From positions 1 through 45,410 of the forward strand of contig DRHW01000006.1 in the NCBI GenBank assembly GCA_011053005.1: a stretch of DNA of 45,410 bases, given 5' to 3'. The notes under the pieces are model-generated. The model had not been told where the DNA came from. It ran no database searches and saw only the letters and a list, made by a program, of their open reading frames with translations. Source of the stretch: Methylophaga sp. Its GTDB lineage: Bacteria; Pseudomonadota; Gammaproteobacteria; Nitrosococcales; Methylophagaceae. Made by a program: the position numbers and the translations under genes. This document shows, in pieces, positions 22,916 through 43,598 of this stretch (the stretch's first letter is position 1; every line of letters begins with the position of its first letter).

Positions 22916-22916
22916 T

Positions 22917-25380: not shown

Positions 25381-25893
25381 TCATGGTTTTAATGACGCTG
25401 TCATACAGGCTTGTAATGCCCTAGCGATATATTTTTCAACCGAGGATACAGATACACCCAAACGTTCAGCAATCTCTTTATAACTGAGATTATCGAGCTG
25501 CCTTAATAACAAAGCTTTGCGAACATTATCAGGTAAACGATGTAGTAAAGCATCAAGTTCGGTGAGTGCTTCGATCATCAACGTATGGATTTCAGCAGAA
25601 GGATAATGGGCTTCTGGGATATTTTGCAGATATTCTAAATAAGATTTCTCGATCTGATTACGACGGTATTTGTCGATTAATAGCCCTTTAGCAATATGCG
25701 TTAGGAAACGTTTTGAGTCCTCTTTTTTAGGAAGCTTGTCACTGGCCAAAATGCGAAGATAGGAGTCATGGATCAGATCCATTGTATCGTCAGGGCACCC
25801 GATACGCCGCTGAATAAACACCGACAGCCAATTACGGTGCTCAAGGTAAAGCTGCTTAACCTGCTCCGTATGTGTCTGCCTTAAAATTGTCAT
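25381..25893 (-). CDS. fecI: FecI-type ECF sigma factor
   Basis: A 170-aa extracytoplasmic-function sigma factor. Region 2 is YLEHRNWLSVFIQRRIGCPDDTMDLIHDSYLRIL (about residues 17-50), and region 4 is NVRKALLLRQLDNLSYKEIAERLGVSVSSVEKYIARAL, a clear -35-binding HTH (about 124-164). Length fits the FecI group. It should be held and activated by the FecR protein at 16356 and direct transcription of the receptor operon. Unusually, it is not next to fecR: it faces the operon from the far end, convergent with the YbaN-like gene (27 bp between stops). A strong Fur box sits upstream. Confidence 0.94.
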   Translation of the reverse strand: MTILRQTHTEQVKQLYLEHRNWLSVFIQRRIGCPDDTMDLIHDSYLRILASDKLPKKEDSKRFLTHIAKGLLIDKYRRNQIEKSYLEYLQNIPEAHYPSAEIHTLMIEALTELDALLHRLPDNVRKALLLRQLDNLSYKEIAERLGVSVSSVEKYIARALQACMTASLKP

Positions 25894-25924
25894 TCAAGCC
25901 TCTTAATCACCCTTATTAAACACT

Positions 25925-25944
25925 AATGAGAATCATTATCATTT
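25925..25944. promoter_or_regulatory. Strong Fur box upstream of fecI
   Basis: AATGAGAATCATTATCATTT is a near-consensus Fur site, 32 to 51 bp before the fecI start. Iron repression of the sigma factor gates the whole haem locus. Confidence 0.85.
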
Positions 25945-26196
25945 AATGAGAAGCTTTATGCAAGTCCTATCTCAGATGCTTTTAAATTTGACGGCTATAA
26001 CACTATTAATATTCTTTTTTTGCTATTTTACGGCACGTAAATAATAGCCTTGCGAAGAATAACTTTTTATCAATCTTAAATATTGAGTTAGTCTGTAATT
26101 AAACCAGCAAACCTCTTGCTATTTTTTGCTAATACAATCCGTGACACAAGACTAAAATCATCCCCCTCTTAATATTTATTTAATTTTGAGTTTTAT

Positions 26197-26337
26197 ATGC
26201 GATTTTATTTATTGTTACCCTTAGCCATCGCCTTTCTACCGATGACTGCTATGCAGCAGATAACTGTGAAGTATCAGTTACAGACTGAAAATATGTTTAG
26301 AGATCAAGCTTGCAATCTAGTTAATCAGTTTAGGTAA
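26197..26337 (+). CDS. 46-aa putative exported peptide
   Basis: MRFYLLLPLAIAFLPMTAM is a signal-peptide-like start, followed by a polar tail (QQITVKYQLQ, then NMFRDQACNLVNQF). A GAG lies 8 nt before the ATG. It sits on the chromosomal side of the island junction. Not recognised; could be a real small protein or the decayed front of a longer periplasmic protein. Confidence 0.4.
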   Translation: MRFYLLLPLAIAFLPMTAMQQITVKYQLQTENMFRDQACNLVNQFR

Positions 26338-26354
26338 TATCTATGGGACAGAGG

Positions 26355-26391
26355 CAAAAAAAAACAGCTACCGAATTAACGATAACTGTTT
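26355..26391 (-). terminator. Terminator of the tRNA-Arg transcript
   Basis: On the minus strand AAACAG and CTGTTT (with TA/TA inside) close a hairpin followed by a run of nine T residues, 19 bp past the CCA end of the tRNA-Arg fragment. It would be the original terminator of the tRNA gene, so the DNA to its left is the original chromosome. Confidence 0.8.
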
Positions 26392-26409
26392 GTTTCTACA
26401 CTAAGTGTA

Positions 26410-26454
26410 TGGTGCGCCCGGCACGATTCGAACGTGCGACCGCCTGGTTCGTAG
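26410..26454 (-). other. 3' fragment of tRNA-Arg(ACG): island attachment site
   Basis: Reads, on the minus strand, CTACGAACC (anticodon loop with ACG), the 3' anticodon stem, a perfect T-arm (GCACG-TTCGAAT-CGTGC), the 3' acceptor strand CGGGCGC, then A and CCA. The 5' half of a tRNA is absent: bases right of 26454 do not continue it. A lone 3' end of this kind is the duplicated att site left by integration into a tRNA. With this orientation the element lies to the right and the intact tRNA-Arg should be at its other end, outside the window. Confidence 0.85.
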
Positions 26455-27130
26455 AAAGAGAACCTTAATTTAAGCTATTGATTTTAATATAAATAAAAAT
26501 GTGGTGTTCGTTGCGTATATCACTACAAATCATAACTCATCATAACTGATTCACTTAAATTTAACGAAGTACAATTTGTCTACTATTAAGCTCACATAAC
26601 CAGATATTCTCTAATTACTTTTACGACGGAATAATCGAACCCCCGTTCACACCTTATTTTTAAAGGCTTACAGAACCGCGGTGGTATTTCTGAGGCATTT
26701 CGCCCTCCCTTCCAATTCGATTCCCAGTTTCTCAATCGGATCCAGACCCGAGCAGAGTAGCTAAAAGAGCTAAAATCAATAGCCTAATCATAACAAAATT
26801 AATGAGGTTATCGATTAATGTTATCTACGATCACTTCGACCTGGGTAAAGCTATTATATTTCGATGCTGACGGGTGGAAACTATTGGGCGTTGATTAACA
26901 GAATACTAAATCAATGAATGTCTATACCAGTACTGATAACCTTCACAAAGAAACATCTGTAACATAACCTATAGCTATGGGGAAGCCTCCAAAGAGGAAA
27001 GATATTTATTCAAATTATTTACACAAATCACACGTAGTTTATCAGCTAAACCAAAAACTACTGAAGGAAACAAAATCAGGTAAATAGATTCAAAAAATCA
27101 AGTCACCACTAATATGCATTATATTCTTGC
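26455..27130. other. 676-bp island end without a gene
   Basis: AT-rich, with no ORF I can support. It holds a GGGGGTTCGATT motif on the minus strand (around 26632-26650) that recalls a tRNA T-arm but does not fold into a tRNA. The 3' untranslated end of the reverse transcriptase gene enters it from the right. It may carry a non-coding RNA for the reverse transcriptase, but no clear structure stands out. Confidence 0.45.
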
Positions 27131-30100
27131 CTATTTTGGTAATATCCTTCGTTTTGGATCCAGCACGAATCCTTCAGGTAGAGGTTTAAATGGATCACCT
27201 TTTTCAGCCCATCTCTTCGCTCTGCTCTGAAATGCCCTTAACTTTTCAATATCTAAAGTTACAGCAACGCAATAATCATTATCCCCACCTTTTAATCTAG
27301 CTAAGTCTCGCTGAAATGACTCTTTAGCTGGTGACCTAACACGACTGTCTCCGTACTCACGATTATTAACTAATATCGTATAAGCATGAATATCAAGTGC
27401 GGCTGATTCTACTAATGCAGAGAAAGTATCAAGGTCCTTATTCCATGCAAGTAGCATCAATGCATCGACTTTTCCTTGGTATTTCATTCGAGATTTTGCA
27501 TTTTGCAGTTCCGAACAAATCATTACGCCAAAATAAAAGTTATTGTGTCGATATACAGGTTTAAAAGGCTTCGGATAACCTGCTAACTTTGGATTTTGCC
27601 AAGATTTTCCATACTTCGAAATTAGCTCCTTATCTTCACCAACAGCTGGCTCCCATTTGGGTTGCCAAATTCGAACCGCTGATGGAAATCCCAAACGATT
27701 GTCAGTTAAAACCAAACATGCCTCGCTTAAAACTTTATTATCAGGAAAGTGTCGATAATCAGTACCAGCTATCAAGCTAATACCAAGCTTAACTAACCTA
27801 TTTGCAATACTATCGACCCAATCTAAAGGCACAGAAAGTTCGGGGAAAATGATATAATTAGGTTTTGGATTTAATTTTATTGCTTGATTAACAACTGATG
27901 AAATGCGTCTATATCTTTCTAAACTAGTTGCTCTTTTCCCAGCAGCCATAAGAGCCCAATCTTGATCATCGGTTTTAATATTGGTCAATACCACTACAAC
28001 TTTATTATTACTCTTAGTCCCAATTTTGAGTTTGTACTTAAATTTATTATTTTTATCTTCATTATCTTGTTCTGCGGCTAAAAGTGTAGGCTTAATCCAA
28101 ACGCCTCTAACAGCCCTCACATATTTAGCCCAAAGTTTAACTGGATTATTTTTCGGATCTTCTGCTTCACTTTTAGTTTTGAATAACCCTACACATTCAG
28201 GAACGAGCTCTGCAATTTCTGATGGATGATAAGGACGAGTGGGAAAGATAAAAGGTAGAATATTTTCACCTGTCTTATCCGCACCTTTAAGCTTGCTCAA
28301 ACGTTTTTGCCTACTTTTATTAACAAAGTCTTTCAAAGCATCAGTATCTAAGAGTTCTGTTCTTGAAAATGCATTCATGATCTTCCTGTCATCTTTTCTA
28401 TTCAATGACTTTATTAATAATTCTGATGCTGCTTCTGTATTTAAAATTCGTTTATATGCTTCTTTAGCCAAATCTGCTCGGGCAACTGATATAGCCTTTT
28501 TATAAAACTGCTCTACTGTAAGAATAGCGAATAGGCTTTCACCTGAACGGTCTAATTCATCAAAAACGTAATCAATGAATAGTTCTGCAAGCCTTCTTTT
28601 TCGAACATTACCAAATAGTTGTTTTGGGTTGTAATGTTTTATCGTAGCATCGATAAAGCACCATGTTAACGTTGCTCTAAGATATTTCCATAAAGCATCA
28701 CCAGAATATGTCTGCTGTCCGTTGATATATATCTGCTGACCCGGCTTGATTTCATCTGCCAACTCATGAAGTGAGTCGAATGCTTTCAGTACAATTTTCT
28801 CTGCTTCGCCCCACTCGTCGAGGCTTATCGCAAATCCTAATAATCTAGGTAAATAGTTGTAATGTTGAAAAAGCCTATCAGGTCTCAGAATGTGGTCATG
28901 GGCAAATTGATAAAACTCACTTCGTTGTGTTTTCCATTCATTGGGTGGCAAATCTCTTGCGAGTGATTCGACGTGACGCAACTGTAATGCCCAGCCAAGA
29001 CGCTTTATTGTCAGCCCGTCAGCTCTTCTTAAATTATCTGCTTGCTCACTGACATCTCCAGAAGCAGAAAGTACCTTTGCTGCCGTAGAGTCGTCAAGGT
29101 TATCAGGAGATGGCATCAAGCGATGTTCACTGGAGAGTTCATAAATTTCCTTCTCAATACTATCGAGGAGATCTTTACCGCCTTGTCCTTGCAATATAAA
29201 TAGCTTTTGTTTTTCTGCTTGCAGTCTTATCTGAGTTTGTTTTTGAAACATTTCGCCCTGTTGTATTCGCCAAACACTCTCTTTTTCATCTGATTCTTTC
29301 TTATCTTTGAAAAAATGTTGTTTTCCAATACGCTGTTGAATAAACTCCATCAAATCTTCTGTGTTAGTAATAGTTCCTGGGTCTCGAAGAACCAAAAACA
29401 TATCATCTACATAACGTCCATAGTGAATAGGTGTTAGCTTCTCCTTGATAAGCTTGTCCCAGCGGTGAAGAATTACATTCGATATAACTCGAGATACCGT
29501 TAAACCTATTACTAATCCACTAGGTACATGAGAATTAGAAATATTTACCTTTTTGGCAAACTTACCCGACTCATCAGACCAATGCTTGAGAAATTGAGCG
29601 AGTACTTTTGTAAATTTCTTTTCCTGCGGACTCAGCTTCTTTTCACCTATCAAAGCTAACTCTTCATAAAGTGCTTTTGATGATATCGCTAGAGGGTCTA
29701 TATAGTGATAATAAGCTTTCAAATCTAAGGAAGCGGCAATGACGTCATGTTTAGAATCTAACTCGTTACGGATAGCCTTCAAGCCATCACTGCGCCACTT
29801 TTGATAAGGTTGAAAATAAGGAAGAAATGAACCGACTGCAGTAATATGAAAAGGTCGATCATTATCTGGATTAATCTCCTCGTCATTCCTGACACGTTTT
29901 AACCTAGCACCATAGCAACTGTCATCAAGCTGAGCATCAAACTTGTGCCCAACCATATTTATCCAAAGTGCAGAAATAATGTGCGCATCAACTGGAAAGT
30001 CACCGATAATTCTAAACTCAGGCACCAATTGATTATTTTTAGTTAAGCATTCAAATGCACGGGCCGGATCAGAAAAATGGATATGTCCATTCGATGCATC

Positions 30101-30364
30101 AGCCTTTGATTTCAAACCAAGTTTTTTAGGTGTCAACCTAAAATCACCCAGCAAACGTTCATTTAATGCAAATCCTTTGTCCTGTTTGAGTTCTTCCAAA
30201 AGAACATCTAAGTTATCTAGTAGTTTTTCTTCATATTCTGCAAACTTTATCGCTGTTGGAAATGTATTCTCAAAAAAACAATCTGCTTTAGCTTTGCGAT
30301 AAGCGACAATAAGGTCTTCTCTTGTCAACTGGTCCCATCCATTGAACGCTGCTTTGTAAGTCAT
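27131..30364 (-). CDS. Reverse transcriptase-nitrilase fusion (DRT type 1-like)
   Basis: A 1077-aa protein. The N-terminal reverse transcriptase has motif A (ASLDLKAYYHYI, Asp214), a motif B-like GLVIGLTVSRVISNVIL (283-299) and the catalytic YVDD (318-321). A long helical region (about 420-720) links to a C-terminal nitrilase/CN-hydrolase domain: FPELSVP (Glu842), WQPKW (candidate Lys about 903) and GVMICSEL (Cys950). RT-nitrilase fusions belong to the UG/Abi reverse transcriptases; the type 1 DRT system with this plan protects against phage. Both active sites look intact. The gene is overlapped by a small upstream gene and forms the left end of the island, next to the tRNA-Arg junction. No group II intron or retron msr/msd pattern was recognised. 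Confidence 0.92.
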   Translation of the reverse strand: MTYKAAFNGWDQLTREDLIVAYRKAKADCFFENTFPTAIKFAEYEEKLLDNLDVLLEELKQDKGFALNERLLGDFRLTPKKLGLKSKADASNGHIHFSDPARAFECLTKNNQLVPEFRIIGDFPVDAHIISALWINMVGHKFDAQLDDSCYGARLKRVRNDEEINPDNDRPFHITAVGSFLPYFQPYQKWRSDGLKAIRNELDSKHDVIAASLDLKAYYHYIDPLAISSKALYEELALIGEKKLSPQEKKFTKVLAQFLKHWSDESGKFAKKVNISNSHVPSGLVIGLTVSRVISNVILHRWDKLIKEKLTPIHYGRYVDDMFLVLRDPGTITNTEDLMEFIQQRIGKQHFFKDKKESDEKESVWRIQQGEMFQKQTQIRLQAEKQKLFILQGQGGKDLLDSIEKEIYELSSEHRLMPSPDNLDDSTAAKVLSASGDVSEQADNLRRADGLTIKRLGWALQLRHVESLARDLPPNEWKTQRSEFYQFAHDHILRPDRLFQHYNYLPRLLGFAISLDEWGEAEKIVLKAFDSLHELADEIKPGQQIYINGQQTYSGDALWKYLRATLTWCFIDATIKHYNPKQLFGNVRKRRLAELFIDYVFDELDRSGESLFAILTVEQFYKKAISVARADLAKEAYKRILNTEAASELLIKSLNRKDDRKIMNAFSRTELLDTDALKDFVNKSRQKRLSKLKGADKTGENILPFIFPTRPYHPSEIAELVPECVGLFKTKSEAEDPKNNPVKLWAKYVRAVRGVWIKPTLLAAEQDNEDKNNKFKYKLKIGTKSNNKVVVVLTNIKTDDQDWALMAAGKRATSLERYRRISSVVNQAIKLNPKPNYIIFPELSVPLDWVDSIANRLVKLGISLIAGTDYRHFPDNKVLSEACLVLTDNRLGFPSAVRIWQPKWEPAVGEDKELISKYGKSWQNPKLAGYPKPFKPVYRHNNFYFGVMICSELQNAKSRMKYQGKVDALMLLAWNKDLDTFSALVESAALDIHAYTILVNNREYGDSRVRSPAKESFQRDLARLKGGDNDYCVAVTLDIEKLRAFQSRAKRWAEKGDPFKPLPEGFVLDPKRRILPK

Positions 30365-30668
30365 ACTGATCCCTTTTCTTTTTGCTTATTTTTTGTTTGA
30401 TTGATAAGTTTAGTTTTTCTGCTTTGATATTTACTAGTAATGATTCGGCAAAATTGTCTCCACGGATCAAGTTATCATCGGCGGCACGCCTGACTGCATT
30501 GTGTTCATCACGGAATGCTTTGGTGAGATTATTCACTCGTACTAATAATTGTTGGACTTTTTCAGTACTTTTTGCGAGTTTAACGAAAATAGGCTCACAC
30601 TCAGCTAAAAAAGAAAAATTACTCTTTGCAGTCTCTATGTTGTTCATTAACATCATTTGCCCACCCAT
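30288..30668 (-). CDS. Small helical partner of the reverse transcriptase
   Basis: A 126-aa frame, highly helical and charged (KSNFSFLAECEPIFVKLAKS, then VQQLLVRVNNLTKAFRDEHNAVRR). The N-terminal part recalls DUF4145-like starts, a weak resemblance. It overlaps the upstream gene by about 50 bp and runs 77 bp into the reverse transcriptase gene, which is odd. One extra A in the six-A run near 30396-30401 would change the end to KNKQKEKGSV and a stop that overlaps the RT ATG as ATGA. So the natural protein may be about 105 aa and the long overlap an artefact or mutation. Probably an accessory DRT component. Confidence 0.6.
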   Translation of the reverse strand: MGGQMMLMNNIETAKSNFSFLAECEPIFVKLAKSTEKVQQLLVRVNNLTKAFRDEHNAVRRAADDNLIRGDNFAESLLVNIKAEKLNLSIKQKISKKKRDQYDLQSSVQWMGPVDKRRPYCRLSQS

Positions 30669-31122
30669 TTAGATAGCTTAGTAATTCTATGAAGGTAGCA
30701 TTATCACCAAGTAGAGTATAAAACATGCTCGAAAGAGGGTAAGGACCCCATACATCGACTGATAGCCTCTCAAATACCTCTACCGTAGCTTGCGTCTGTT
30801 TGCTTAGTCTGGTTTTATCCCATTCATTGTTATGTTTCCAGTAATTAGCGCATGCATTGGTAATTTCAGCGTAAGATTTTCCGGTTGAATGAAAAGGACC
30901 TTTTTTAAAAGCTACAAATTTGTTTTCACCTTTATGCATTGACACTAAAAACGTTTGGCATATAGCAAACCCAATACCATAAAACTCTTCATATTGTTCT
31001 ATTAGTCCAAATGTGTCTGGATCAGGATGCTTAGAAATTTCAATTCTATAATTGGCTAACACAAGATCAATTGGCTCAAGGATATTTAATATAGATACCC
31101 GATTGTAATGAGTTTTCATCAT
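30619..31122 (-). CDS. Unrecognised protein upstream of the reverse transcriptase
   Basis: About 167 aa from tandem ATG codons at 31122 and 31119 (MMKTHYNRVSIL), each just after TTAGGAGT; a TTG at 31137 is less likely. Soluble, mixed helical, with aromatic-rich stretches (EQYEEFYGIGFAICQTF, SVDVWGPYPLSSMFYTLLG). Not recognised. Its 3' end overlaps the small RT partner, so the three genes form one transcription unit. Its start lies directly next to the attC-like site at 31125-31179, as a cassette gene would. Confidence 0.65.
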   Translation of the reverse strand: MMKTHYNRVSILNILEPIDLVLANYRIEISKHPDPDTFGLIEQYEEFYGIGFAICQTFLVSMHKGENKFVAFKKGPFHSTGKSYAEITNACANYWKHNNEWDKTRLSKQTQATVEVFERLSVDVWGPYPLSSMFYTLLGDNATFIELLSYLNGWANDVNEQHRDCKE

Positions 31123-31124
31123 AC

Positions 31125-31179
31125 TCCTAACGAGCAAGTTGAGGGGCTATAGCGAACAAACTTGAACTGCTTGTTAAGT
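31125..31179 (-). other. attC-like integron recombination site (55 bp)
   Basis: On the minus strand: ACTTAAC (fits RYYYAAC), then AAGCAGTTCAAG, an 18-nt centre, CTCAACTTGCTC and GTTAGGA (GTTRRR, last base off consensus). The two halves pair imperfectly with extra-helical bases, and the GTTCAAG and CAACTTGC boxes resemble known attC L-boxes. 55 bp equals the shortest known attC sites. Confidence 0.5.
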
Positions 31180-31209
31180 TTTGTCTGCATTTGCAACGAA
31201 ATGATCATA

Positions 31210-31434
31210 TTATTTACGAGCCTCTTCCTCCGTTCCTAATGCAACATCAATAACCACTTGAAGGCTCCATAAAGGAGCAGGAGTAACCAGTTCTAAATCT
31301 AGGTCTTTGGGATAAGCTTCAGGATCTATTGCCATTTCAAAAGCCATCGAAAATATCGAAGCTGTGATGATATTTGTTTTAAGCGTCTCGGGATGAAGAG
31401 CTCTCTCCCACGATGCTTTAACTTTTTCGTCCAT
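31210..31434 (-). CDS. Hypothetical 74-aa protein between attC-like sites
   Basis: From the ATG at 31434 (MDEKVKASWERALHPETLKT); the frame opens further to a TTG at 31449. Acidic C-terminal half (AIDPEAYPKDLDLEL) and an LWSLQVVIDVALG helix. It has no signal peptide or membrane segment. Not recognised. It is flanked on both sides by attC-like sites, the layout of a single-gene integron cassette. Confidence 0.55.
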   Translation of the reverse strand: MDEKVKASWERALHPETLKTNIITASIFSMAFEMAIDPEAYPKDLDLELVTPAPLWSLQVVIDVALGTEEEARK

Positions 31435-31453
31435 ACTCAATCTCGACAAAAAA

Positions 31454-31551
31454 ACTTAACGATCTAATTAAAGGGCGTGAGTTACAAGCATCCCAACGGG
31501 AGTCACGCTTTTTTTGTGGCTGGAGTGAATTTGACCTTTTTTAGGTTAAGC
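31454..31551 (-). other. attC-like site with extensive self-pairing (98 bp)
   Basis: On the minus strand it opens with GCTTAAC (RYYYAAC) 1 nt after the zinc-finger gene's stop and closes with GTTAAGT (GTTRRRY). Ends pair 6 of 7, followed by CTAA/TTAG and AAAGG/CCTTT. Inside is GCGTGA/TCACGC (31475-31480 and 31503-31508) around a small TCCC-AAC-GGGA hairpin; on the plus strand this is followed by seven T residues and could also act as a terminator. Confidence 0.5.
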
Positions 31552-31552
31552 A

Positions 31553-31975
31553 TCAATGTCTTCTCCTGTTTCCTTCAAATGCACCGCCTGTTTTCGCATA
31601 TTCCAAGGCATCCTTCTTCCCAAAAGACCTATCGAATAACATCGGCTTACAGTCAGCACAAATATTCACCACTCCATGAGAACTCTCAGTGTAATGCCAT
31701 ACAGGAGATTTCTCCTTGTGGCACAAATTACACTCGGTTTTTCTTTCAATCCGTGTCCCTCTTTTGCTGATGAGCATTAATTTATTTTTCTTCTTGCGGC
31801 CCTTTTTCTGTGTGTTAGGTGTTTTGCCCTTCGTCGTTTTAGTACTAGGTCTAATGTTATCCAATACTTTATTCTTACTTTCGGATTGGCACCCAAATTT
31901 CTTGTGTTCCAAGTAATAGCTTTTCAATACTTTGGATTCGCACTCAGGGCAAATGATTGTTAGTTCCTTGGCCAT
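31553..31975 (-). CDS. Small zinc-finger protein
   Basis: A 140-aa protein with two probable zinc sites: an N-terminal IICPECESKV...HKKFGC (C2HC-like, residues 8-29) and a C-terminal CNLCHKEKSPVWHY...VNICADC (about 82-109, with a CxxC, an HNH-like spacing and a final CxxC). A Lys-rich linker (KGKTPNTQKKGRKKKNK) joins them and could bind nucleic acid. The C-terminal part could be a minimal treble-clef or HNH-like fold, but no catalytic His pair is convincing. Starts 6 nt after GTTAGGT, a possible cassette boundary (31981-31987), and its stop abuts an attC-like site. Confidence 0.75.
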   Translation of the reverse strand: MAKELTIICPECESKVLKSYYLEHKKFGCQSESKNKVLDNIRPSTKTTKGKTPNTQKKGRKKKNKLMLISKRGTRIERKTECNLCHKEKSPVWHYTESSHGVVNICADCKPMLFDRSFGKKDALEYAKTGGAFEGNRRRH

Positions 31976-32098
31976 TTTTAACCTAACTTGTTTTTAAAGG
32001 GAATAGTGATTCCATCTATTTACTTCTCATGATAGTACTTAGGCCTAAGCCCAACAAAATGATATGGAGTGACCATATGACTCGAATTACACCATGCT
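31976..32098. other. Intergenic: 12-bp palindrome, possible third cassette boundary
   Basis: A perfect CTTAGGCCTAAG palindrome lies around 32039-32050. Near 31981-31987, the minus strand reads GTTAGGT preceded by CCCTTTAA, like the end of the 98-bp attC-like site. No matching RYYYAAC partner is visible, so it is not called as attC. Confidence 0.35.
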
Positions 32099-32272
32099 TT
32101 ATTTGTCATTATTGAGAATCCCAGAAGCGATTAAACTCTCTGTATGGGGAAAAAGTGAAAAACTAAATCGGTCTAATATTGGGATAGCCGCAACGATACC
32201 TATTAATTTAGTCAAACGACGTACACCTTCAGGCAGCACCGTTGACTTTATTTGATTGTAATCTTTACCCAT
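32099..32272 (-). CDS. 57-aa putative membrane-associated protein
   Basis: Starts MGKDYNQIKSTVLPEGVRRL, followed by a hydrophobic stretch LIGIVAAIPILDRFSFSLF. It begins 9 nt after the stop of the DUF262 gene on the same strand. The GGAGG at the end of that gene lies 15 nt before the ATG, a little far. Not recognised; a coupled accessory peptide is plausible. Confidence 0.45.
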   Translation of the reverse strand: MGKDYNQIKSTVLPEGVRRLTKLIGIVAAIPILDRFSFSLFPHTESLIASGILNNDK

Positions 32273-32281
32273 GATTCGCTT

Positions 32282-34096
32282 TTATAACCTCCATATTTCA
32301 ACAGCAGTCGCAGCAAACAGTTTGCACCGTTCCTGAACAGCACCAAAATCAAAGTGTTTAGCACTGTACTCATGGCACAAATTCTTTGTTAATTGAATAT
32401 TAGAGTTTTTATATTCATTCATTTTGGCTGAGAAAGGATTATTAGAGGCAACGATGTTTAATCCACCAGCTATCAGAGTGAAGTTACCGATTTTATTCAC
32501 ATAGTTACGATGCAGAGCCGTTCCTTGAGGGCATAAATATGACTCCCAGTCTCCGAATTCTTTCTTAGATTTTTTGGTATCGATTGTCTGAGGAATGATA
32601 TGTTCTAAATGAACATCGCTACCAGATTGCAGAATGTATTCGCCCTGGTCGCCAATAAGATGATACTCAAGCTTTTCTAAAATATATTTTGCTCGATTTA
32701 TCTCTCTTTTAAAGTTGGCTGACTCAAACTTATCTTGGAACTCTGCATCTGTAGGCAAATCTTTACGCAATTGATTTTTTATCTCTTCAACGATATTGTC
32801 ATTGCTAAGCGGTATTAACTTCGCGAAAATATTATCTAACTCACTCGTCCGATATTCGCAGATATGTCGGCGTAACATGAACGTCTCGATAACTTTAAGA
32901 ATATCAATATAAGTGGCTAAATTAAGCCCTTGCCTTTGAAATAGGTCTAGCAAGAAAATGTAAGAAGGAAATGATTTTATACGCTGTAAATTGTAAACAT
33001 GTTGATTGATCTTTTTTTCGCTGAACTCTCGATTAAGTATATTACGGTAGGTCAATGAAGCATTTCTCAATGCAGTTGAAAACTCGATAATTGAGATTTT
33101 ACCATCCACCTCCAACGGCACCACTACATCGTCAATTACAGCATCATCTAAATCATCATCAATCAACTCATCTTCTATTTCTTCAGCGTATTCAACTGGT
33201 TGAGCAAGTTCACTATACAGCTCATATTCTGATAAGTTTTCAGCTTCTTTAACCCGATGAAAATAGTATTTTTTAAACTCATCAATAATATAAGTATCAG
33301 TTACTTTATAGGTTCGAATACCAGACATAAATTGTCGGAAAAATTTATCACTGTCGATCCTATCCAAGTTGATGATAAGATTTTTCCAATTTTCACGAAC
33401 AGTAGCGATCGTATCTTCACTAATCGTTGATGCATGGCCAAGCAGAAAGTTTTTGATGATATCGGTACTATCAAGTTTTAGGCCACGGTTATTGATCGTT
33501 TCAAACAACCTGAAAGCATCCTTAGCTTCACCCACATCAAGTCTGATCAGTAGCACGTTATTAATGAATTTAAAATAAAGTTCATTAAGTGCATCATCCG
33601 TAAGCTGAGCAACCCACTCTTTTAATTTGTTGTAGGCCATCACTAGGTTTTTATTTTTAACATCATCAAGATTCTGCTGAGAAAGTACTGATGAATAATC
33701 AGTATTATCTAAATCGCCCAGCAATATCTTATTCATCGGTTTTCTATCAATACCTTTGCAAACTAGATAATTACCAATTTCACTCGCCACTTCCTCATTA
33801 CCTAATTCTAGAAAACGGTTTTGCATGACTTTCAGGAATATCGACAAACTAGTGATTCGTTGCTGACCATCAACAATCTCTAGGGGATTAAGCCCGGCCG
33901 TGTGACTAAACGTGAGGCAAACTAAGCTACCCAGAAGATGAGTATCGTTAGTTTTTAAATGATGGATATCATCAAACAATTCACCTAACTGTTTCTCTTG
34001 CCATGAATATCTTCGTTGATAGGCTGGAATAACAAACTGCTCATTTGTACTACTAAATAGCTGACTGAGTGTTAACGTGGTTGGTGTTATTTTCAT
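32282..34096 (-). CDS. DUF262/DUF1524 nuclease (GmrSD-like)
   Basis: A 604-aa protein. The N-terminal DUF262 domain has FVIPAYQRRYSW (21-32), LLGSLV and the hallmark IVDGQQRITSL (74-84), a ParB/Srx-like NTP-binding site. The C-terminal DUF1524 domain has an HNH-like HLEHIIPQT and NKIGNFTLI. In GmrSD and related type IV restriction enzymes these domains use NTP to cut glucosylated hydroxymethylcytosine DNA; other family members act on other modified DNA, so the exact target is open. An acidic stretch in the middle (EEIEDELIDDDLDDAVIDD) is unusual. A single-gene defence system within the island. Confidence 0.9.
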   Translation of the reverse strand: MKITPTTLTLSQLFSSTNEQFVIPAYQRRYSWQEKQLGELFDDIHHLKTNDTHLLGSLVCLTFSHTAGLNPLEIVDGQQRITSLSIFLKVMQNRFLELGNEEVASEIGNYLVCKGIDRKPMNKILLGDLDNTDYSSVLSQQNLDDVKNKNLVMAYNKLKEWVAQLTDDALNELYFKFINNVLLIRLDVGEAKDAFRLFETINNRGLKLDSTDIIKNFLLGHASTISEDTIATVRENWKNLIINLDRIDSDKFFRQFMSGIRTYKVTDTYIIDEFKKYYFHRVKEAENLSEYELYSELAQPVEYAEEIEDELIDDDLDDAVIDDVVVPLEVDGKISIIEFSTALRNASLTYRNILNREFSEKKINQHVYNLQRIKSFPSYIFLLDLFQRQGLNLATYIDILKVIETFMLRRHICEYRTSELDNIFAKLIPLSNDNIVEEIKNQLRKDLPTDAEFQDKFESANFKREINRAKYILEKLEYHLIGDQGEYILQSGSDVHLEHIIPQTIDTKKSKKEFGDWESYLCPQGTALHRNYVNKIGNFTLIAGGLNIVASNNPFSAKMNEYKNSNIQLTKNLCHEYSAKHFDFGAVQERCKLFAATAVEIWRL

Positions 34097-34185
34097 GGTT
34101 CATCCTATGTTCATGAATTGCTCAATGCCCTGTTAAAAGCATCATATTAAATTGTACATTGCTACTAACTTGTAATACTTACCAT

Positions 34186-34484
34186 CTAAAACACACCATA
34201 ACTACTCATCCCTGCCCCTTGATAATTAGAGTAAATATGTTGGTACACCAACAGACTTTTAATATCCAACTCTTCATCAGGGTATGGCACTTGTGGTAAC
34301 CACTGCAGACTATCATTAATCATCGTTCTAACTTGGGCGCTGATTTGTGTGCTTTCACGCCAACCCTGTACTTTCAGCTTTTGAGTGTCTCATTATCAAT
34401 TGAAACAGCACCAAAGTTTAAGTCTTTTTTGAGTGTCTCATTATCAATTGAAACAGCACCAAAGTTTAAGTCTTTGTCGTCCAT
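34186..34484 (-). pseudogene. Frameshifted remnant, perhaps of a type I restriction R subunit
   Basis: From an ATG at 34484 the frame reads MDDK and two copies of DLNFGAVSIDNETLK, then stops at 34374. A frame offset by one base carries on without a break: KLKVQGWRESTQISAQVRTM, INDSLQWLPQVPYPDEELDI, KSLLVYQHIYSNYQGAG, to a stop at 34186. Adding one A to the four-A run just before AGCTG joins the two. The second part recalls C-termini of HsdR-type subunits (LP...Y...E...K...VYxH...Y), a weak resemblance from memory. Only a short tail exists, so the gene is a fragment whatever the frameshift's origin. Confidence 0.55.
34379..34475. repeat. Two-copy 48-bp tandem repeat
   Basis: Unit at about 34381-34428 repeated at 34429-34475 with full identity (TTGAGTGTCTCATTATCAAT, then TGAAACAGCACCAAAGTTTA, then AGTCTTT). 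48 bp is 16 codons, so the repeat is in frame within the remnant gene. Complete identity points to a recent duplication. Confidence 0.95.
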
Positions 34485-34495
34485 CAATATTATTC

Positions 34496-35212
34496 TTACT
34501 GATTATTTATAAAAACAATCACATCAGAAGATTGATGATGAACTTCCAATCTGCCATTCTGACTGAGGTCACTTGCTTGAAAGTGAAGTTCAAATGGGAA
34601 CCACACTGGCGCGTCACTTATCGTCGTTAAGCTTCGACTAGATTGGCTCTCAGAATACAAACTTGCTTCGACAAGCCAAGCTTTAACTGATGACGAATCA
34701 ACCTTAATAGGTTTTTGCGTTTGATAGAGACCTTGCTTAGGGTTAGCCAAAAGATCAAGGTTAATCAATGTCCTCACAACAAATTGCATACTTCTTTTAA
34801 TAGTAGATGTATCACCAAAGTTTTCAACTACTCTTTGTTCCAACTGTGCATATAAGAATGCATCGTTTAACTTCGTCAATCGACCTATTTGACCTACAAC
34901 TAAGTAAAAAAATGGGTATTTAGCCAGCATCATTCCCCAGTGGAATACTAAATTTAACTCACTATGTTCCATAATAAGTTTTGCAGCATCATCTTGAAAT
35001 GCTTTCGGAATATGCGCTGGCAGTTTATTCCAAATCCCAAAAAGCAAATTACGTGTTTTATCTTTAGCAACTTGACTTGTAAATACTGGTGCAAGCATCA
35101 AATCAATCTGGCTTTTTAATTCGTCACCTTCAATGTCCTTAGCAACCCACGATGCAGTTTGCGTTAGCCATTCAGTTTCAAGATGTCGATTAAATCCTAT
35201 TGATACTTTCAC
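34496..35212 (-). CDS. BrxA-like protein, second copy
   Basis: A 238-aa protein paralogous to the gene just upstream (35226). Shared segments include FNRHLETEWLTQTASWVAKD (compare FSRHVEKDWLDQTALWC), DKTRNLLFGIWNKLPAHIP, LVFHWGMMLAKYPFF, IGRLTKLNDAFLYAQLEQRV and a C-terminal LEVHHQSSDVIVF. It has diverged well below identity, so the duplication is old. In BREX type 3 a single brxA normally follows pglZ; this is an extra member, 13 bp downstream of the first. Role by family: small DNA-binding BREX component; specific task unknown. Confidence 0.75.
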   Translation of the reverse strand: MKVSIGFNRHLETEWLTQTASWVAKDIEGDELKSQIDLMLAPVFTSQVAKDKTRNLLFGIWNKLPAHIPKAFQDDAAKLIMEHSELNLVFHWGMMLAKYPFFYLVVGQIGRLTKLNDAFLYAQLEQRVVENFGDTSTIKRSMQFVVRTLINLDLLANPKQGLYQTQKPIKVDSSSVKAWLVEASLYSESQSSRSLTTISDAPVWFPFELHFQASDLSQNGRLEVHHQSSDVIVFINNQ

Positions 35213-35225
35213 TTTTCTTGTTTTC

Positions 35226-35933
35226 CTATTTCCTGAAAATCACTAAATCATTGCCTTGCTGATGCAATTCAAACCACGATTGTTCAATTTCATTAGCTTG
35301 TACATTAAAGTCAAATGGAAACCAAATAGCATCATCTATAATATCGGGTAAAGATCGACTCATTACCTCTTCACTAATTAATAAAGAATAAAGAAGCCAG
35401 TTTTTAAGGTCTGAATTTACCACTAATTTTCGATCTGCAACCTGATAACTTCTAGATGAACTCCGTATCACCACCCCAAACTCTACAAGTGTTTTTAATA
35501 CAGATCGTAAGTGCCGTTTAACCGTCTCAGTATCCCCGTATAATTCAACCATTCGTTTTTGAACTTGGGCATAAGTAAAAGAACAATTTAATTTCGTTGT
35601 TCTACCAATAAATCTAGCTACCTCAGCAAAGAATTTTTTCTTTGCAATTAGCAAACCCCAATGGATAGCTAAGGGAATATCACTACTACCTCTCACTTTA
35701 TCACAGGCAAACTTTTGAAAGCGTGATGGAATATTTCCAGGTATATCAATCCAAATTGAAGTTAATTGATTCCTTGTCTTTCCAAGATTAATCTTGCATG
35801 TAATCCAGGGCGTCAGCATCGTATTAATCTTTGTGACTATTTCTTTTTTATCTAAATTATCTGTACACCACAAAGCAGTTTGGTCCAACCAGTCTTTTTC
35901 TACGTGTCGACTAAAACTAACTTTTTTCAACAT
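35226..35933 (-). CDS. brxA: BrxA-like BREX protein, first copy
   Basis: A 235-aa protein directly after pglZ, overlapping it by 17 bp, which is the place of brxA in BREX type 3 operons. Helical N-terminal half with GKTRNQLTSIWIDIPGNIP (residues 51-69) and IHWGLLIAKKKFF; the central part (VQKRMVELYGDTETVKRHLRSVLKTLVEFGVV) looks like a winged helix. Overall similarity to the BrxA of type 1 systems is not obvious from sequence alone, so the name rests on position, size and the KTR pattern. Confidence 0.75.
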   Translation of the reverse strand: MLKKVSFSRHVEKDWLDQTALWCTDNLDKKEIVTKINTMLTPWITCKINLGKTRNQLTSIWIDIPGNIPSRFQKFACDKVRGSSDIPLAIHWGLLIAKKKFFAEVARFIGRTTKLNCSFTYAQVQKRMVELYGDTETVKRHLRSVLKTLVEFGVVIRSSSRSYQVADRKLVVNSDLKNWLLYSLLISEEVMSRSLPDIIDDAIWFPFDFNVQANEIEQSWFELHQQGNDLVIFRK

Positions 35934-37914
35934 TATGTTTATTTTTTCTCTTAATGATTGCTAACGGTACAATAACTTCGTGTAAGCCTATTCCACCGTG
36001 TCCGACGATCTTTTGTCCAGCCTTAACGAATGCGTGACAACCTCGACTTACCAGAGGGTAAAAACCATTTGGTAACCCATATTTTTTGCTGGGCCAGTTT
36101 ATCACCTTGCCATTTAAATTATCTGAAGATAGTGTGCTTTTTGCTGCCTCAGCACTCTTATACATTCTAACTCGCTCGCCCTTGGTTTCAGCCTTTACTC
36201 CTTCATTGAGTCGACCAGCCCCAACAGCCTCCTGATTACCGTGATCAGCAGTAATGATAATTTCATAACCTTCATCTAATAAGATATTAATTTTGTCCGT
36301 AAATTGCCACTGTTCAAGCCAGTCATCGACAACAGAGTTCAAACCAGACATCCCAGCCTTCATACCGTGCATTTGCTCATCAATGAAATTTATAACTAAC
36401 CCTGCAACCATCACATTCCGTGATCCAATCAAGTCTTTAAAATCAGTATAATTTATTTTGTCTTCAACTTTCTTTGCATAAAGAACTTGCTCACGATTAA
36501 GTCCTTGGTCATCCCAATAATTTGTCCATAGTGCCTTTTCTTTAGCTGTAGTCAACAATGAATCTGCAAAATAGTATGGCTTCTTCCCTGAAAATAAAGC
36601 CTGCCGAGAAATAGATGTAATAGTGGGTACCCAAGCAAAACAATAGCGTTCATCCACAGCAATATTAGCACAAGTATTTAATTTATCTCGTAATAGTGCC
36701 CACTGTTGAAAGCCCATTCCATCCATCACCAATAAACAAACTTTTTTCCCTAATTGAACTTTTTGATTGAGCCAGCTAGGAATCTTATGGAGCATATTCG
36801 GATATTGGACGGATGGAATCGATATTAACTCACCATATTTATCTAATAACCAAGCCTCAAAGCTTTCATCTGTCTGTCGGTTTAAATCAACAAGATTTTC
36901 AATTTCTAAAGCTAACAATTGTTGCCTAATTTGATATGAAATTGCATTAAGGTTTCCCAACCCACGTGCTAGTTCTCCCCAAAAATCAGCATTCACAGTC
37001 TTTATATCTATTTTTGAAAGTGATTTTTTAACGGTGTCATATAAATGTTGATAACGCTTCAGCTTTGTTTGATCGTTATCCGTTTGAATGCCAATCCAAG
37101 CCCAATGTTCAGGAGCAATCCCTACGAACTTAATTGGTTTTAACAAGCCATCTGCAAATAAGTTGTCTACAAAAACTTTTATGTCCTGATCATCAAATGG
37201 CACAATAAGCTGATGATTTGGATAAGCCGTTTCCTTAAGCTCATTACTAATAAGTAAGCTATCTAAATACATTCCCCATTGCTGTTGTAAAAACTCAAAG
37301 AACTGCGGCTTGTATGGAATAAGTTGGTCAAATTTCCACCCCGAAAATACAGTATTTAAATTCAGTAAACGAATTAAATGCTTTTCTATTTCTTCAGGCA
37401 TCTCATTCATTAAATAATGCTTCCGAATCAGCATTCTCACCACATCAACATCTGTTTGAATTATTTCTGGTGCAATTTTATAAATATGTCTCAACACAAA
37501 GTCCAAACTTGCCACTTTTGTCAACTTTCCAGGTCGATAACTTTGAACTCGCATACTGATAAGTTGGTAATTCTCGGGGGGGATAATTCTTAATACATCT
37601 GCATCTATATCCTCAATAACTTCACTTATATGAAAATCGACAATTTTCGATTTACGTAACAACTCATACGGGATATTTATCTCATTAATATCAGAGTATC
37701 GAAACAGAAAAGCACCACCACTTTCCTTTTCTAACCACTCTTCATAAATAAGGTGCAAAGCAATTGGATCTACATCATCAAAGATTATTGCTTTAGATTG
37801 CTTGATAGCGTTGGAGATGTGTGGCTCATAACAAATGCGATCAGGATCATTGATGACAAAGCATAACGACTCATTCAACGCTAACTTATTAAGTAACCTA
37901 TCTTGCCATTGCAT
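35917..37914 (-). CDS. pglZ: BREX phosphatase PglZ (type 3-like)
   Basis: A 665-aa protein of the alkaline phosphatase superfamily. The metal-binding and nucleophile region is LLVMDGMGFQQWALL (394-408) with VPTITSISRQALFSG (429-443) supplying the likely nucleophile Thr/Ser. A second metal cluster is IITADHGNQEAVGAG (553-567), and VSRGCHAFVKAG, VGHGGIGLHEVIVP lies near the C-terminus. The N-terminal half is specific to PglZ and helical. PglZ is the core marker of BREX systems, required for phage exclusion and for host DNA methylation. Size and position fit BREX type 3. The gene starts 3 bp after the helicase stop. Confidence 0.93.
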   Translation of the reverse strand: MQWQDRLLNKLALNESLCFVINDPDRICYEPHISNAIKQSKAIIFDDVDPIALHLIYEEWLEKESGGAFLFRYSDINEINIPYELLRKSKIVDFHISEVIEDIDADVLRIIPPENYQLISMRVQSYRPGKLTKVASLDFVLRHIYKIAPEIIQTDVDVVRMLIRKHYLMNEMPEEIEKHLIRLLNLNTVFSGWKFDQLIPYKPQFFEFLQQQWGMYLDSLLISNELKETAYPNHQLIVPFDDQDIKVFVDNLFADGLLKPIKFVGIAPEHWAWIGIQTDNDQTKLKRYQHLYDTVKKSLSKIDIKTVNADFWGELARGLGNLNAISYQIRQQLLALEIENLVDLNRQTDESFEAWLLDKYGELISIPSVQYPNMLHKIPSWLNQKVQLGKKVCLLVMDGMGFQQWALLRDKLNTCANIAVDERYCFAWVPTITSISRQALFSGKKPYYFADSLLTTAKEKALWTNYWDDQGLNREQVLYAKKVEDKINYTDFKDLIGSRNVMVAGLVINFIDEQMHGMKAGMSGLNSVVDDWLEQWQFTDKINILLDEGYEIIITADHGNQEAVGAGRLNEGVKAETKGERVRMYKSAEAAKSTLSSDNLNGKVINWPSKKYGLPNGFYPLVSRGCHAFVKAGQKIVGHGGIGLHEVIVPLAIIKRKNKHNVEKS

Positions 37915-37917
37915 TAG

Positions 37918-40713
37918 CTAGTCTCTTATCTCACAAGCTAGATGAAGGTTTAACTCAGGATAAACAGCTTTTTTATCAGCCATTTTTTTCGTCCAGTTAT
38001 TATATTCATCATCTAACTGTCTCAACCGATAATTTTTCACTTCTGGTAAACCGATTCTATTAATCGCCCGTCTACGAGCTAAAAATGAATACTCACCTTT
38101 TTCTCTTTGCTGTTCTAAATCAGTTAAATGCTGTGCCAGCATATTTTCAAATACAAACTTACCTTGCTGCTTTGCATTATTTAGAAGTTGTAGATAAATA
38201 TCGTTTTTATTGATTAATTTATCTGCAGCAATATTTCCTAACTGGATGCTTTCAGAACAAATAGCATCCCAAATTCGATTTGATGCTGGTGAAGAATACT
38301 GACCATCTAAAGCAATATAAATAGGTAGGTATTTTAATTGTCTTTCATCTTGTCCTGCAAAACGTATGCTCCACAATGACCAAAAACCTTTTACACCACT
38401 AGGCAATGAGGGAACACTGATGATGGGGATATTTTGTACTTCACTCCACAGAGGCAAGCTTGCGCACAACCCTCTTATTTTAGGGTTCTCAAGGGTAATA
38501 TGCTTCAGGTTAAGATCATCTTGAGCTTCTTTGCCCACAAAGGTAATATTATTCCAAATAGCCCCATCTTCCCATTTAAGGTTCAATCCTCTCCCCTCAA
38601 GTAAAGTAAAGCTTGTTTTTTGTCCCATTTCTTGTCGCCAAGCTAAATACTGCTTCACCATATTGGCAATCCAGTGGGGTAATGGATGGTTTGTTATTTT
38701 TTGATAATCATAAGCTTTCAGCTCAACATTATCCGAAAATAAATTATCCTGTGAATGTTTATCTCTAGCAGCTTCTTGAACCGTTTGTAAGGCTTTTTCA
38801 AGCTCTTGGTCCATTACCGCTGGATTAGTTAATGATTCCATAAATAACTTATCAAATAAATGATTGGCTTCGGCAGAATCTAATACATCACTGCTCTTAT
38901 CAACACCAAATTCATCTAAGATAATTTGAAGTTTAGCTTCTAACACCTCACGGACACGATGTTCAACTGTATCTTCCAGTACAAAGTTTATTGCCCTAAC
39001 AATATGAGGCTGACCAATACGATCAACGCGGCCTATTCTCTGTTCCATCCTCATCGGATTCCAAGGCATATCGTAATTAACAATAATATGACAAAACTGT
39101 AAATTTATGCCTTCGCCGCCTGCATCAGTAGAAATCAAGATTCGAGCATCACCTGCAAACTCAGTTTGTACTTTTTGACGCTCATTCACATCCATCGAAC
39201 CATTTAAGCAAACAATACTAATACCACGGTCTGTAAAAAACTTACTTAGCATTTGCTGAGTAGGAACAAACTCTGTAAATACCAACATTTTTAAATTCGG
39301 AGACTGCTCCTCCTGCTGTAACTTATATAGCCAGTCAATCAAGGCTTCGGCTTTTGCATCACTTTCCTTAGCAACACATCTTTCGGCTAATTGTAGTAAA
39401 TGTTCGACTTCCCCTTTCTCATTATCGAGCGCTTGTTTACCTTCACTAATTAATTTATCAAGCTGGGATTGTCCATCTAACTCAGCCCACTCTTCAGCAG
39501 ATATCATTGGAAGATCTTCTTCGATAACTATATTATTAAGAGCATCTAACCTTCGAGCTAATGTCTTAGCAATAGCAGCACTACTAGAGCTCACCAACCG
39601 TTGCATCAATATCATTAAAAAACCAATTCCATTCTGCTTTTTTGCTTTAGCCTGGTTGTAACCTTCTTTTATATACTCAGTTACTTCATCATATAACTGC
39701 CTTTGCAAGGCATGTTTCTTTTGCCAAGCGACGGGAATCAATGCTGTTTTTCTGGGCTGGAATAATGACTTTCCTTCGCCATCAATAGAGATACGCTTTT
39801 CGGTTCGAATGACATAAGGGTTAACGCGGTCTTTCGTAATACTTCCAAGGTCAGGAAAGGCTTCTTTATCAATCAAAGCCATTAAGCGATGAAAGGCATC
39901 ACTTTTACCTTGATGCGGCGTGGCTGATAGTAGTAAGAGATAAGGTGCCGATTCTGCTAAACCTTGCCCTAGCTTATACCTAGCAACAAGCTCTGTACTC
40001 CCACCTAGTCGATGTGCTTCATCAACAATAATAAGGTCCCAGCCAGATGCTAATAGATCATCAAAACGATGTTTGTTGTATTCGTGTACCTGTTTTAATG
40101 ACCAACCTTGTCGCATTTCAATCGGTTTAATACTATCAACAGGACACACAATCTGATCGTGTCTAAGCCAAATATTATCGTGCTCATCTACAGCTTTCTG
40201 CTCACCAGGAAGTAATAAGTGAAAACTTTCATTGAAATGAATCTTCATCTCACTTACCCACTGACTCACCAAGCCTTTCGGGGTACAAATTAAAATACGC
40301 TTTGCCATCCCCCGCAATTTTAGCTCACGTAAAATCAGTCCTGCTTCAATAGTTTTTCCCAAGCCCACTTCATCAGCAAGCAAATAGCGAACTTGCTTTC
40401 GAGACATCGCCTTACTAAGAGCCTTTAATTGATGGGGTAAAGGGATCACATTGGATTCAATCGGGGCTAACAATATATCTTCTTTTTGAGCATTCGCAAT
40501 TTTTGCAGCAATGCTAATGTAAGAAATGAAATGCACATCAGTCGATGAGGCTTCATTTGGTGAGGTTAAATCATCACTCGATACCTTCACCAGAACATCT
40601 TGCTGTTGTAACCATATACGATAAAAACTTTGCCCCCAAAGAACGGCATTCTCAATTACCTTCACATTTTGTTGATATGACTTACTCCATGCCCAATCAC
40701 CGACATTAAACAT
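37918..40713 (-). CDS. brxHII: BREX SNF2-type helicase (BrxHII)
   Basis: A 931-aa superfamily 2 ATPase. The SNF2 N-terminal half has Walker A LLADEVGLGKTIEAGLIL (111-128), ICTPKGLVSQW, DEAH (231-234) in LIIVDEAHRLGG, and LLSATPHQGK. The C-terminal helicase half has FTEFVPTQQM, ILISTDAGGEGINLQFC and MEQRIGRVDRIGQ (motif VI). The final 300 residues are an accessory region. SNF2-type translocases of BREX type 3 move on DNA and are needed for defence. The gene lies between pglX and pglZ, as in the type 3 order; gaps are 18 and 3 bp. Confidence 0.92.
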   Translation of the reverse strand: MFNVGDWAWSKSYQQNVKVIENAVLWGQSFYRIWLQQQDVLVKVSSDDLTSPNEASSTDVHFISYISIAAKIANAQKEDILLAPIESNVIPLPHQLKALSKAMSRKQVRYLLADEVGLGKTIEAGLILRELKLRGMAKRILICTPKGLVSQWVSEMKIHFNESFHLLLPGEQKAVDEHDNIWLRHDQIVCPVDSIKPIEMRQGWSLKQVHEYNKHRFDDLLASGWDLIIVDEAHRLGGSTELVARYKLGQGLAESAPYLLLLSATPHQGKSDAFHRLMALIDKEAFPDLGSITKDRVNPYVIRTEKRISIDGEGKSLFQPRKTALIPVAWQKKHALQRQLYDEVTEYIKEGYNQAKAKKQNGIGFLMILMQRLVSSSSAAIAKTLARRLDALNNIVIEEDLPMISAEEWAELDGQSQLDKLISEGKQALDNEKGEVEHLLQLAERCVAKESDAKAEALIDWLYKLQQEEQSPNLKMLVFTEFVPTQQMLSKFFTDRGISIVCLNGSMDVNERQKVQTEFAGDARILISTDAGGEGINLQFCHIIVNYDMPWNPMRMEQRIGRVDRIGQPHIVRAINFVLEDTVEHRVREVLEAKLQIILDEFGVDKSSDVLDSAEANHLFDKLFMESLTNPAVMDQELEKALQTVQEAARDKHSQDNLFSDNVELKAYDYQKITNHPLPHWIANMVKQYLAWRQEMGQKTSFTLLEGRGLNLKWEDGAIWNNITFVGKEAQDDLNLKHITLENPKIRGLCASLPLWSEVQNIPIISVPSLPSGVKGFWSLWSIRFAGQDERQLKYLPIYIALDGQYSSPASNRIWDAICSESIQLGNIAADKLINKNDIYLQLLNNAKQQGKFVFENMLAQHLTDLEQQREKGEYSFLARRRAINRIGLPEVKNYRLRQLDDEYNNWTKKMADKKAVYPELNLHLACEIRD

Positions 40714-40731
40714 CCATATTAACTCCTTAAA

Positions 40732-43557: not shown

Positions 43558-43598
43558 ATCTCATTTCCTAAATTAATCTTTCCGTTTTTCAATTACAG

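What the first reader, a model, noticed from the sequence alone, without database searches (positions are those of the whole stretch)
26355..26454. tRNA-Arg fragment marks the left edge of a defence island
A lone 3' tRNA half with perfect T-arm and CCA, followed by a matching terminator, is a clear att footprint. It predicts a single large insertion from 26455 to beyond 45410, with an intact tRNA-Arg(ACG) and integrase at the right end. All island genes point the same way.
Basis: partly seen in the sequence, partly recalled or inferred. Interest (0 to 1): 0.62.

Follow-up and report, generated by a model that had tools for sequence, protein, structure and literature searches.

The report
tRNA-Arg scar bordering a defence island
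A leftover 3' half of a tRNA-arginine gene marks where a mobile DNA island carrying anti-phage defence genes inserted; the intact tRNA with an integrase beside it lies on another contig of the same genome, so the mechanism is the ordinary, well-known one.

Summary
Window 26410-26454 (minus strand) is the last 45 bases of tRNA-Arg(ACG), from the first anticodon-loop base to CCA, followed by a terminator. The own genome holds one other match, an intact tRNA-Arg(ACG) on contig C40 (47-nt exact repeat). There an integrase gene ends 42 nt from the tRNA's 3' end, and core genes (tRNA-Ser, csrA, lysC, alaS) lie on the other side, as predicted. Joining C40's 5' side to the window's 3' half recreates a site that aligns unbroken with a close relative, G006 (348 of 348 nt, 91.8%). 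The same tRNA bears displaced fragments in 7 of 26 relatives' loci, with other defence-like cargo between (Gabija, a protein kinase). The island side carries a UG5-nitrilase reverse transcriptase, a GmrSD-like gene and a type 3 BREX operon that continues onto contig C43. Not shown: that C6, C43 and C40 form one uninterrupted insertion. The DNA left of the scar (hemophilin locus) looks accessory too. Verdict: new member of a known kind; ordinary, well supported.

The parts
26410..26454 (-). Displaced 3' half of tRNA-Arg(ACG): anticodon loop to CCA; att core of the island's left end (exact repeat with the intact copy is 26408-26454)
26362..26391 (-). Terminator of the ancestral tRNA-Arg gene, stranded with the fragment; also the only terminator-like site in 26300-32300, downstream of the RT gene
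26339..26454 (-). Stretch shared with the intact tRNA-Arg 3' side of relatives (G006 88.8% over 116 nt)
26455..45410 (.). Left part of the island held in this contig (ends at the contig end)
27131..30364 (-). UG5-nitrilase reverse transcriptase (DRT class in PADLOC)
   Evidence: (1007 bits)
32282..34096 (-). GmrSD-like / HEC-06-like restriction protein
34496..35212 (-). BrxA homologue (second in reading order)
35226..35933 (-). BrxA homologue (first in reading order)
35917..37914 (-). PglZ
37918..40713 (-). BREX helicase, taken as BrxHII (SNF2-related domain, 931 aa); best PADLOC model is labelled BrxHI|BrxHII with description BrxHI
40732..43557 (-). PglXI (BrxXI) methyltransferase
43599..45410 (-). 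C-terminal part of BrxC (DUF6079), cut by the contig end; N-terminal part and BrxF are on contig C43

Best explanation
26410-26454 is the displaced tRNA end of a tyrosine-integrase genomic island inserted into tRNA-Arg(ACG). The integrase recombined the island's attP, which carries its own copy of the tRNA 3' half, with the chromosomal tRNA at the anticodon loop. The tRNA 5' half was thereby joined to the island's 3' half and terminator (contig C40, beside the integrase), and the original 3' half with its original terminator was pushed to the far end (this window). The island lies to the right of 26454. It starts with a UG5-nitrilase RT, a GmrSD-like gene and a type 3 BREX operon, continues into contig C43, and most likely ends at the integrase on C40. 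Shown: the repeat, the orientation, the integrase, the difference in terminators and the rejoined empty site. Inferred: contiguity C6-C43-(gap)-C40, the exact crossover base, current mobility, and that the stranded tRNA terminator now ends transcripts of the island's minus-strand genes.
For: One fragment and one intact copy in the genome; 47-nt exact repeat whose identity stops at the anticodon loop. On C40 the integrase ORF ends at 8815 and the tRNA starts at 8858, with tRNA-Ser, csrA, lysC and alaS beyond it. C40's 5' side joined to the window 3' half aligns over 348 of 348 nt with G006 at 91.8%, while the present C40 sequence stops aligning at 282 of 347. 20 of 28 intact tRNA-Arg 3' flanks in relatives score closer to the window flank than to the C40 flank; the best are G006, G028 and G033. 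The C40-type flank recurs in G008 next to an 88% identical integrase piece. Integrase relatives sit at tRNA-Arg(ACG) in 4 of 4 named loci (in L106, which appears to be the same contig as G008:C32, the tRNA is cut by the contig end). 7 of 26 relatives' loci with an intact tRNA-Arg(ACG) also hold a displaced fragment, in the same orientation and on the 3' side. uppP-TauE (window 13842-15482) lies on the tRNA 3' side in G006 too, same contig and relative orientation.
Against: The intact tRNA is on a different contig, no exact overlap of 15-200 nt was found between the six contig ends tested, and the other half of merA at C43's low end was not found in the assembly. Left-side synteny with G006 is limited to uppP-TauE and 116 nt at the tRNA. 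G001, about as close as G006 by alaS and lysC, has another integrase and a C40-like flank at its tRNA-Arg, a galU-like gene nearby and no uppP match; the matching stretch in the own genome lies on C34. In G033 the join test separates the two flanks only weakly (358 against 297 bits). In the class scan the integrase family sits at many tRNAs: of the 29 best non-own loci, 7 at Arg(ACG), 14 at other tRNAs, 8 at none; the tree does not resolve an Arg(ACG) clade. GC content gives no contrast across the edge.
Confidence: 0.92

Rival explanations
1. Composite or tandem occupation: more than one element was inserted at this tRNA or inside the first island, so the fragment and the C40 integrase belong to different elements, or the BREX/RT block is a later insert.
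For: C40 carries a second, 302-aa integrase-like gene (28.8 bits, just over Pfam's cut-off). C43 carries transposase-like genes and a mer operon (my reading) and an EptA gene. G008 has two fragments 1.2 kb apart, and G034 has two intact copies plus a fragment.
Against: Only one fragment exists in the own genome; Islander recognises tandem arrays by each island having its own fragment and integrase.
Confidence: 0.35
2. The fragment is a decayed tandem copy of tRNA-Arg rather than an integration scar.
For: G033, G021 and G034 carry two intact tRNA-Arg(ACG) copies side by side.
Against: The cut is exact at the anticodon loop with 45 of 45 bases intact; the same edge is seen in G013, G015, G018 and G034, beside different cargo; the fragment is not next to csrA/tRNA-Ser, and an integrase stands at the intact copy.
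Confidence: 0.03
3. The island lies to the left of the fragment (hemophilin locus side) and the BREX side is chromosome.
For: The Slam gene of the hemophilin cluster left of the fragment had no match in 29 of 29 other genomes searched.
Against: The fragment's 3' flank is of the ancestral tRNA type, so the chromosome-side join is on the left; in 7 relatives the displaced fragment lies on the tRNA 3' side in the same orientation; uppP-TauE on the left is linked to tRNA-Arg in G006.
Confidence: 0.03

Closest known systems
tDNA-targeted genomic islands (Islander type, anticodon-centred att site 'A')
   Same: Intact tRNA plus a displaced 3' fragment in the same orientation, a tyrosine integrase beside the intact tRNA, identity ending at the anticodon loop. 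Islander lists 2083 A-site islands of 3919 (PMC4383910, passages seen).
   Different: The two ends are on separate contigs here, so the interval is not closed.
Defence hotspots at tRNA genes (E. coli pan-genome)
   Same: Different defence systems occupy the same tRNA site in related genomes; 18 of 41 E. coli hotspots lie in tRNA loci, and one (number 32) is a tRNA-Arg gene (PMC10121019, passages seen).
   Different: Another genus; the site is tRNA-Arg(ACG) after csrA/tRNA-Ser. In E. coli, BREX was reported at hotspots 1 and 37 only.
Type 3 BREX
   Same: BrxF, BrxC, PglXI, SNF2-type helicase, PglZ and BrxA genes in that order; component list as in PMC12839542 (passages seen).
   Different: Two adjacent BrxA genes; an SfsA-family gene lies just upstream of BrxF. 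Whether such variants are already described was not searched beyond, where 'SfsA' did not occur.

Membership tests
tDNA-integrated genomic island | intact tDNA in the same genome | tested here: met
   C40 tRNA-Arg(ACG)
tDNA-integrated genomic island | displaced 3' fragment, same orientation as the tDNA, on its 3' side | tested here: inconclusive
   fragment and orientations fit; relative position needs the contigs to be joined
tDNA-integrated genomic island | tyrosine integrase gene inside the interval | tested here: met
   L003 7622-8815, Pfam Phage_integrase 58.5 bits, beside the tRNA; inside the interval if the contig chain is right
tDNA-integrated genomic island | empty site in a relative | tested here: met
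   joined flanks align over 348 of 348 nt with G006; beyond the terminator synteny is poor
tDNA-integrated genomic island | contiguous interval between the two ends | tested here: inconclusive
   C6 linked to C43 through split brxC only; C43 to C40 unlinked
tDNA-integrated genomic island | excision as a circle | not testable with these tools
   needs PCR or reads
Type 3 BREX | BrxF, BrxC, BrxXI, BrxHII, PglZ, BrxA | tested here: met
   BrxC is split by a contig gap of about 74 model positions; the helicase's best PADLOC model bears both names BrxHI|BrxHII (description BrxHI), and I call it BrxHII from its SNF2 domain and length as
UG5-nitrilase RT (DRT) | RT fused to nitrilase domain | tested here: met
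   PDLC03780 1007 bits over residues 1-1076, PDLC03804 RTasNitrilase over 803-1066; Pfam gave no family at 0.001

The most novel reading that the evidence does not exclude
A genus-wide defence-swapping dock: at least two unlike integrase groups (27-29% identical) use the same anticodon-loop core of tRNA-Arg(ACG) after csrA/tRNA-Ser to exchange different defence cassettes. In this genome the stranded host tRNA terminator serves as terminator of the incoming defence genes.
Probability: 0.4. Interest if true: 0.4.

Novelty: new member of a known kind. Interest (0 to 1): 0.28.

Why it matters
It gives one end of a defence island with base precision and shows that tRNA-Arg(ACG) after csrA is an integration hotspot in this genus. 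That lets others pull out defence cassettes from relatives by looking between the tRNA and its fragment. The mechanism itself is textbook.

Tried and rejected
Rfam on 25900-35000 (0 matches, E up to 1) and on 26300-27140 (3 matches, all far below the gathering scores): no known RNA between the fragment and the RT gene. Blast of 26455-27131 against the other loci held (three that contain it left out): no match. GC content as an island marker: no contrast; GC skew turns negative right of about 26 kb, as expected when all genes lie on one strand. Contig chaining: MerA-family and OEP-family searches in the own genome did not reveal the missing neighbours of C43 and C40; no exact overlaps of 15-200 nt between the six contig ends tested. 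Integrase tree: 7 of 29 inner branches well supported, no Arg(ACG) clade resolved. Plasmid search with 26455-45410, megablast: no match. Viral-contig scan with the integrase: none. Phage records: 138 with an integrase match, all under 60% identity, best listed 42.6%. The 126-aa and 172-aa ORFs upstream of the RT found no counterpart in the short flanks of other UG5-nitrilase RTs (4 loci from 3 genomes).

Considered and rejected: decayed tandem tRNA copy, and island on the left side (see rivals). Paper searches. I saw listings only, plus passages of three papers. No listed title or abstract start names this site; that is not a claim that it is absent from print.

Full report
The window is a whole contig (C6, 45410 b) of a 2.89-Mb, 44-contig genome, so its right edge is an assembly end, not a biological one.

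Observation. The minus strand of 26410-26454 reads as the last 45 bases of a tRNA-Arg(ACG), from the first base of the anticodon loop to CCA. A terminator follows at 26391-26362. ARAGORN finds no whole tRNA in the window. The own genome has two matches to 26355-26454 at E up to 0.001: itself and C40:8800-8902. The latter is an intact tRNA-Arg(ACG) with tRNA-Ser(GCT), csrA, lysC and alaS on its 5' side (the gene names are my reading of the translations). The exact shared run is 47 nt, and identity stops at the anticodon loop.

Integrase. On C40 a 397-aa tyrosine integrase (Pfam Phage_integrase, 58.5 bits) converges on the tRNA. Its ORF ends at 8815 and the tRNA begins at 8858, a gap of 42 nt. 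The named-genome scan gave 4 relatives out of 11 pattern matches. All 4 lie at tRNA-Arg(ACG); in L106 the tRNA is cut by the contig end, and L106 appears to be the same contig as G008:C32 (same length, 22155 b), so it is not independent of the G008 evidence. In the class scan 53 of 369 genomes, the own included, matched at E up to 1e-30. Only the 30 best loci were examined. Of the 29 that are not the own genome, 7 lie at Arg(ACG) (L108; L109, judged from a tRNA piece at a contig end; L110; L129; L130; L132 at 188 nt; L133 by its second aligned piece), 14 at other tRNAs and 8 without a tRNA called. So this is a tRNA-end integrase family that changes targets; the tree did not resolve an Arg(ACG) clade.

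Empty site. I joined C40's 5' side (232 nt, ending in the tRNA 5' half) to the window's 3' half and flank (116 nt) and compared the join with three relatives picked for strong matches. It aligns to G006 without a break over 348 of 348 nt at 91.8%; the occupied C40 sequence stops at 282 of 347, 5 nt past CCA. In G028 the aligned spans are 39-335 for the join and 39-282 for C40. In G033 the contrast is weak: 39-346 (358 bits) and 39-335 (297 bits). Of 28 intact tRNA-Arg 3' flanks (G007's was cut and left out), 20 score closer to the window flank than to the C40 flank. Several of the others differ little either way, but G001 clearly resembles the C40 flank (41.5 against 22), as does the G008 copy beside an 88% identical integrase piece (42 against 8). 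This fits the expected swap: the window keeps the old flank, C40 has the island's.

Direction of the island. The fragment's 3' flank lies to the left, so the island lies to the right. G006 carries uppP-TauE (91% and 81% protein identity to window 13842-15482) on the same contig as its tRNA-Arg, on the 3' side and in the same relative orientation. Against easy reading: between the tRNA and uppP, G006 and the window share only the 116 nt at the tRNA. The Slam gene of the window's hemophilin cluster had no match in 29 of 29 other genomes searched; G034, which was not in that search, has a 63% DNA match to about 24414-25851, far from its tRNA-Arg. G001, about as close as G006 by alaS and lysC identity, has a galU-like gene near its tRNA-Arg and no uppP match, while the matching stretch in the own genome lies on C34. 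The left side is thus a variable region too.

Cargo. From the edge inward: UG5-nitrilase RT, small ORFs, GmrSD/HEC-06-like protein, two BrxA, PglZ, a BREX SNF2-type helicase, PglXI and the C-terminal part of BrxC. The helicase's best PADLOC model is named BrxHI|BrxHII with the description BrxHI; I take it as BrxHII because of its SNF2 domain, its length (931 aa) and its partners. The N-terminal part of BrxC and BrxF are at the high end of C43. The two BrxC pieces match complementary parts of one model (2-557 and 632-1231), with about 74 positions missing between the contigs. This is the type 3 BREX component set described in PMC12839542 (passages seen). C43 further holds transposase-like genes, a two-component pair and a mer operon cut by the contig end (my reading) and an EptA-type phosphoethanolamine transferase. 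C40's left end holds a CzcC-like fragment and a UmuC-like gene (my reading). The chain from C43 to C40 was not found.

Hotspot. One search covered 59 genomes, the own included; 41 of 58 relatives matched and 17 did not. I fetched loci from 29 of the 41. Of these 29, 26 have an intact tRNA-Arg(ACG), each with tRNA-Ser(GCT) beside it, and 24 with csrA found. Seven of the 26 also hold a displaced fragment (G028, G026, G018, G013, G015, G010, G034). In G013, G015, G018 and G034 the identity ends exactly at the anticodon loop; in G028, G026 and G010 small changes blur the edge. G008, G011 and G042 have fragments without an intact copy on the locus. Cargo between fragment and tRNA differs: Gabija in G028 (GajA in two ORFs), a protein kinase (PADLOC mad6 or PD-T4-6-like) with a TPR protein in G015, PDC-M36A in G013. 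G006 has an HNH gene with a weak mREase_IV match (42 bits) beside the tRNA, but no fragment was found there. Integrases only 27-29% identical to the C40 one stand on the tRNA 3' side in G001, G013, G015, G017 and G024, and a 58% piece of the C40 type in G021, so unlike integrases use the same tRNA.

Mechanism. Anticodon-centred integration with restoration of the tRNA is the standard Islander model (PMC4383910, passages seen), and tRNA sites as defence hotspots are established in E. coli (PMC10121019, passages seen). Inferred only: the island genes in the window read toward the fragment, and its terminator is the sole terminator-like site in 26300-32300, so the stranded host terminator may end their transcripts. 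In G013 and G015 the cargo reads the other way, so this would not be general.

Conclusion: a sound att footprint of a known kind, with the decisive prediction met and contiguity open.

Noticed in passing
window 280-9758: A second island-like block: integrase (8490-9758), a 1552-aa abhydrolase/PIN protein and a 646-aa protein with a sub-threshold Permuted_GreAB-C match, resembling the TPR-GreAB-C-PIN conflict system. No tRNA in the window and no repeat of 8201-10240 elsewhere in it.
   Followed up: partly
window 16356-25893: Heme-uptake cluster: HphA hemophilin and Slam by Pfam, with FecR-, TonB-receptor-, heme-oxygenase- and ECF-sigma-like genes by my reading. The Slam gene had no match in 29 of 29 other genomes searched.
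   Followed up: partly
window 11261-12493 and L003 2739-3971: Two similar 410-aa UmuC-like genes (my reading), one near each integrase-bearing block.
   Followed up: no
window 30288-30668: 126-aa ORF overlapping the RT start, similar to the C-terminal end of type I specificity subunits; not found in the flanks of other UG5-nitrilase RTs held.
   Followed up: partly
L100 1-6022 (contig C43): A mer operon cut by the contig end (my reading; partial MerA) and an EptA-type phosphoethanolamine transferase on the contig that carries the rest of BREX.
   Followed up: no
L101 5175-5906 (contig C43): SfsA-family gene directly upstream of BrxF.
   Followed up: no
L035 8700-10286 (G028): Gabija GajA split into two ORFs between the tRNA-Arg and its fragment, either broken or a sequencing error.
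   Followed up: no
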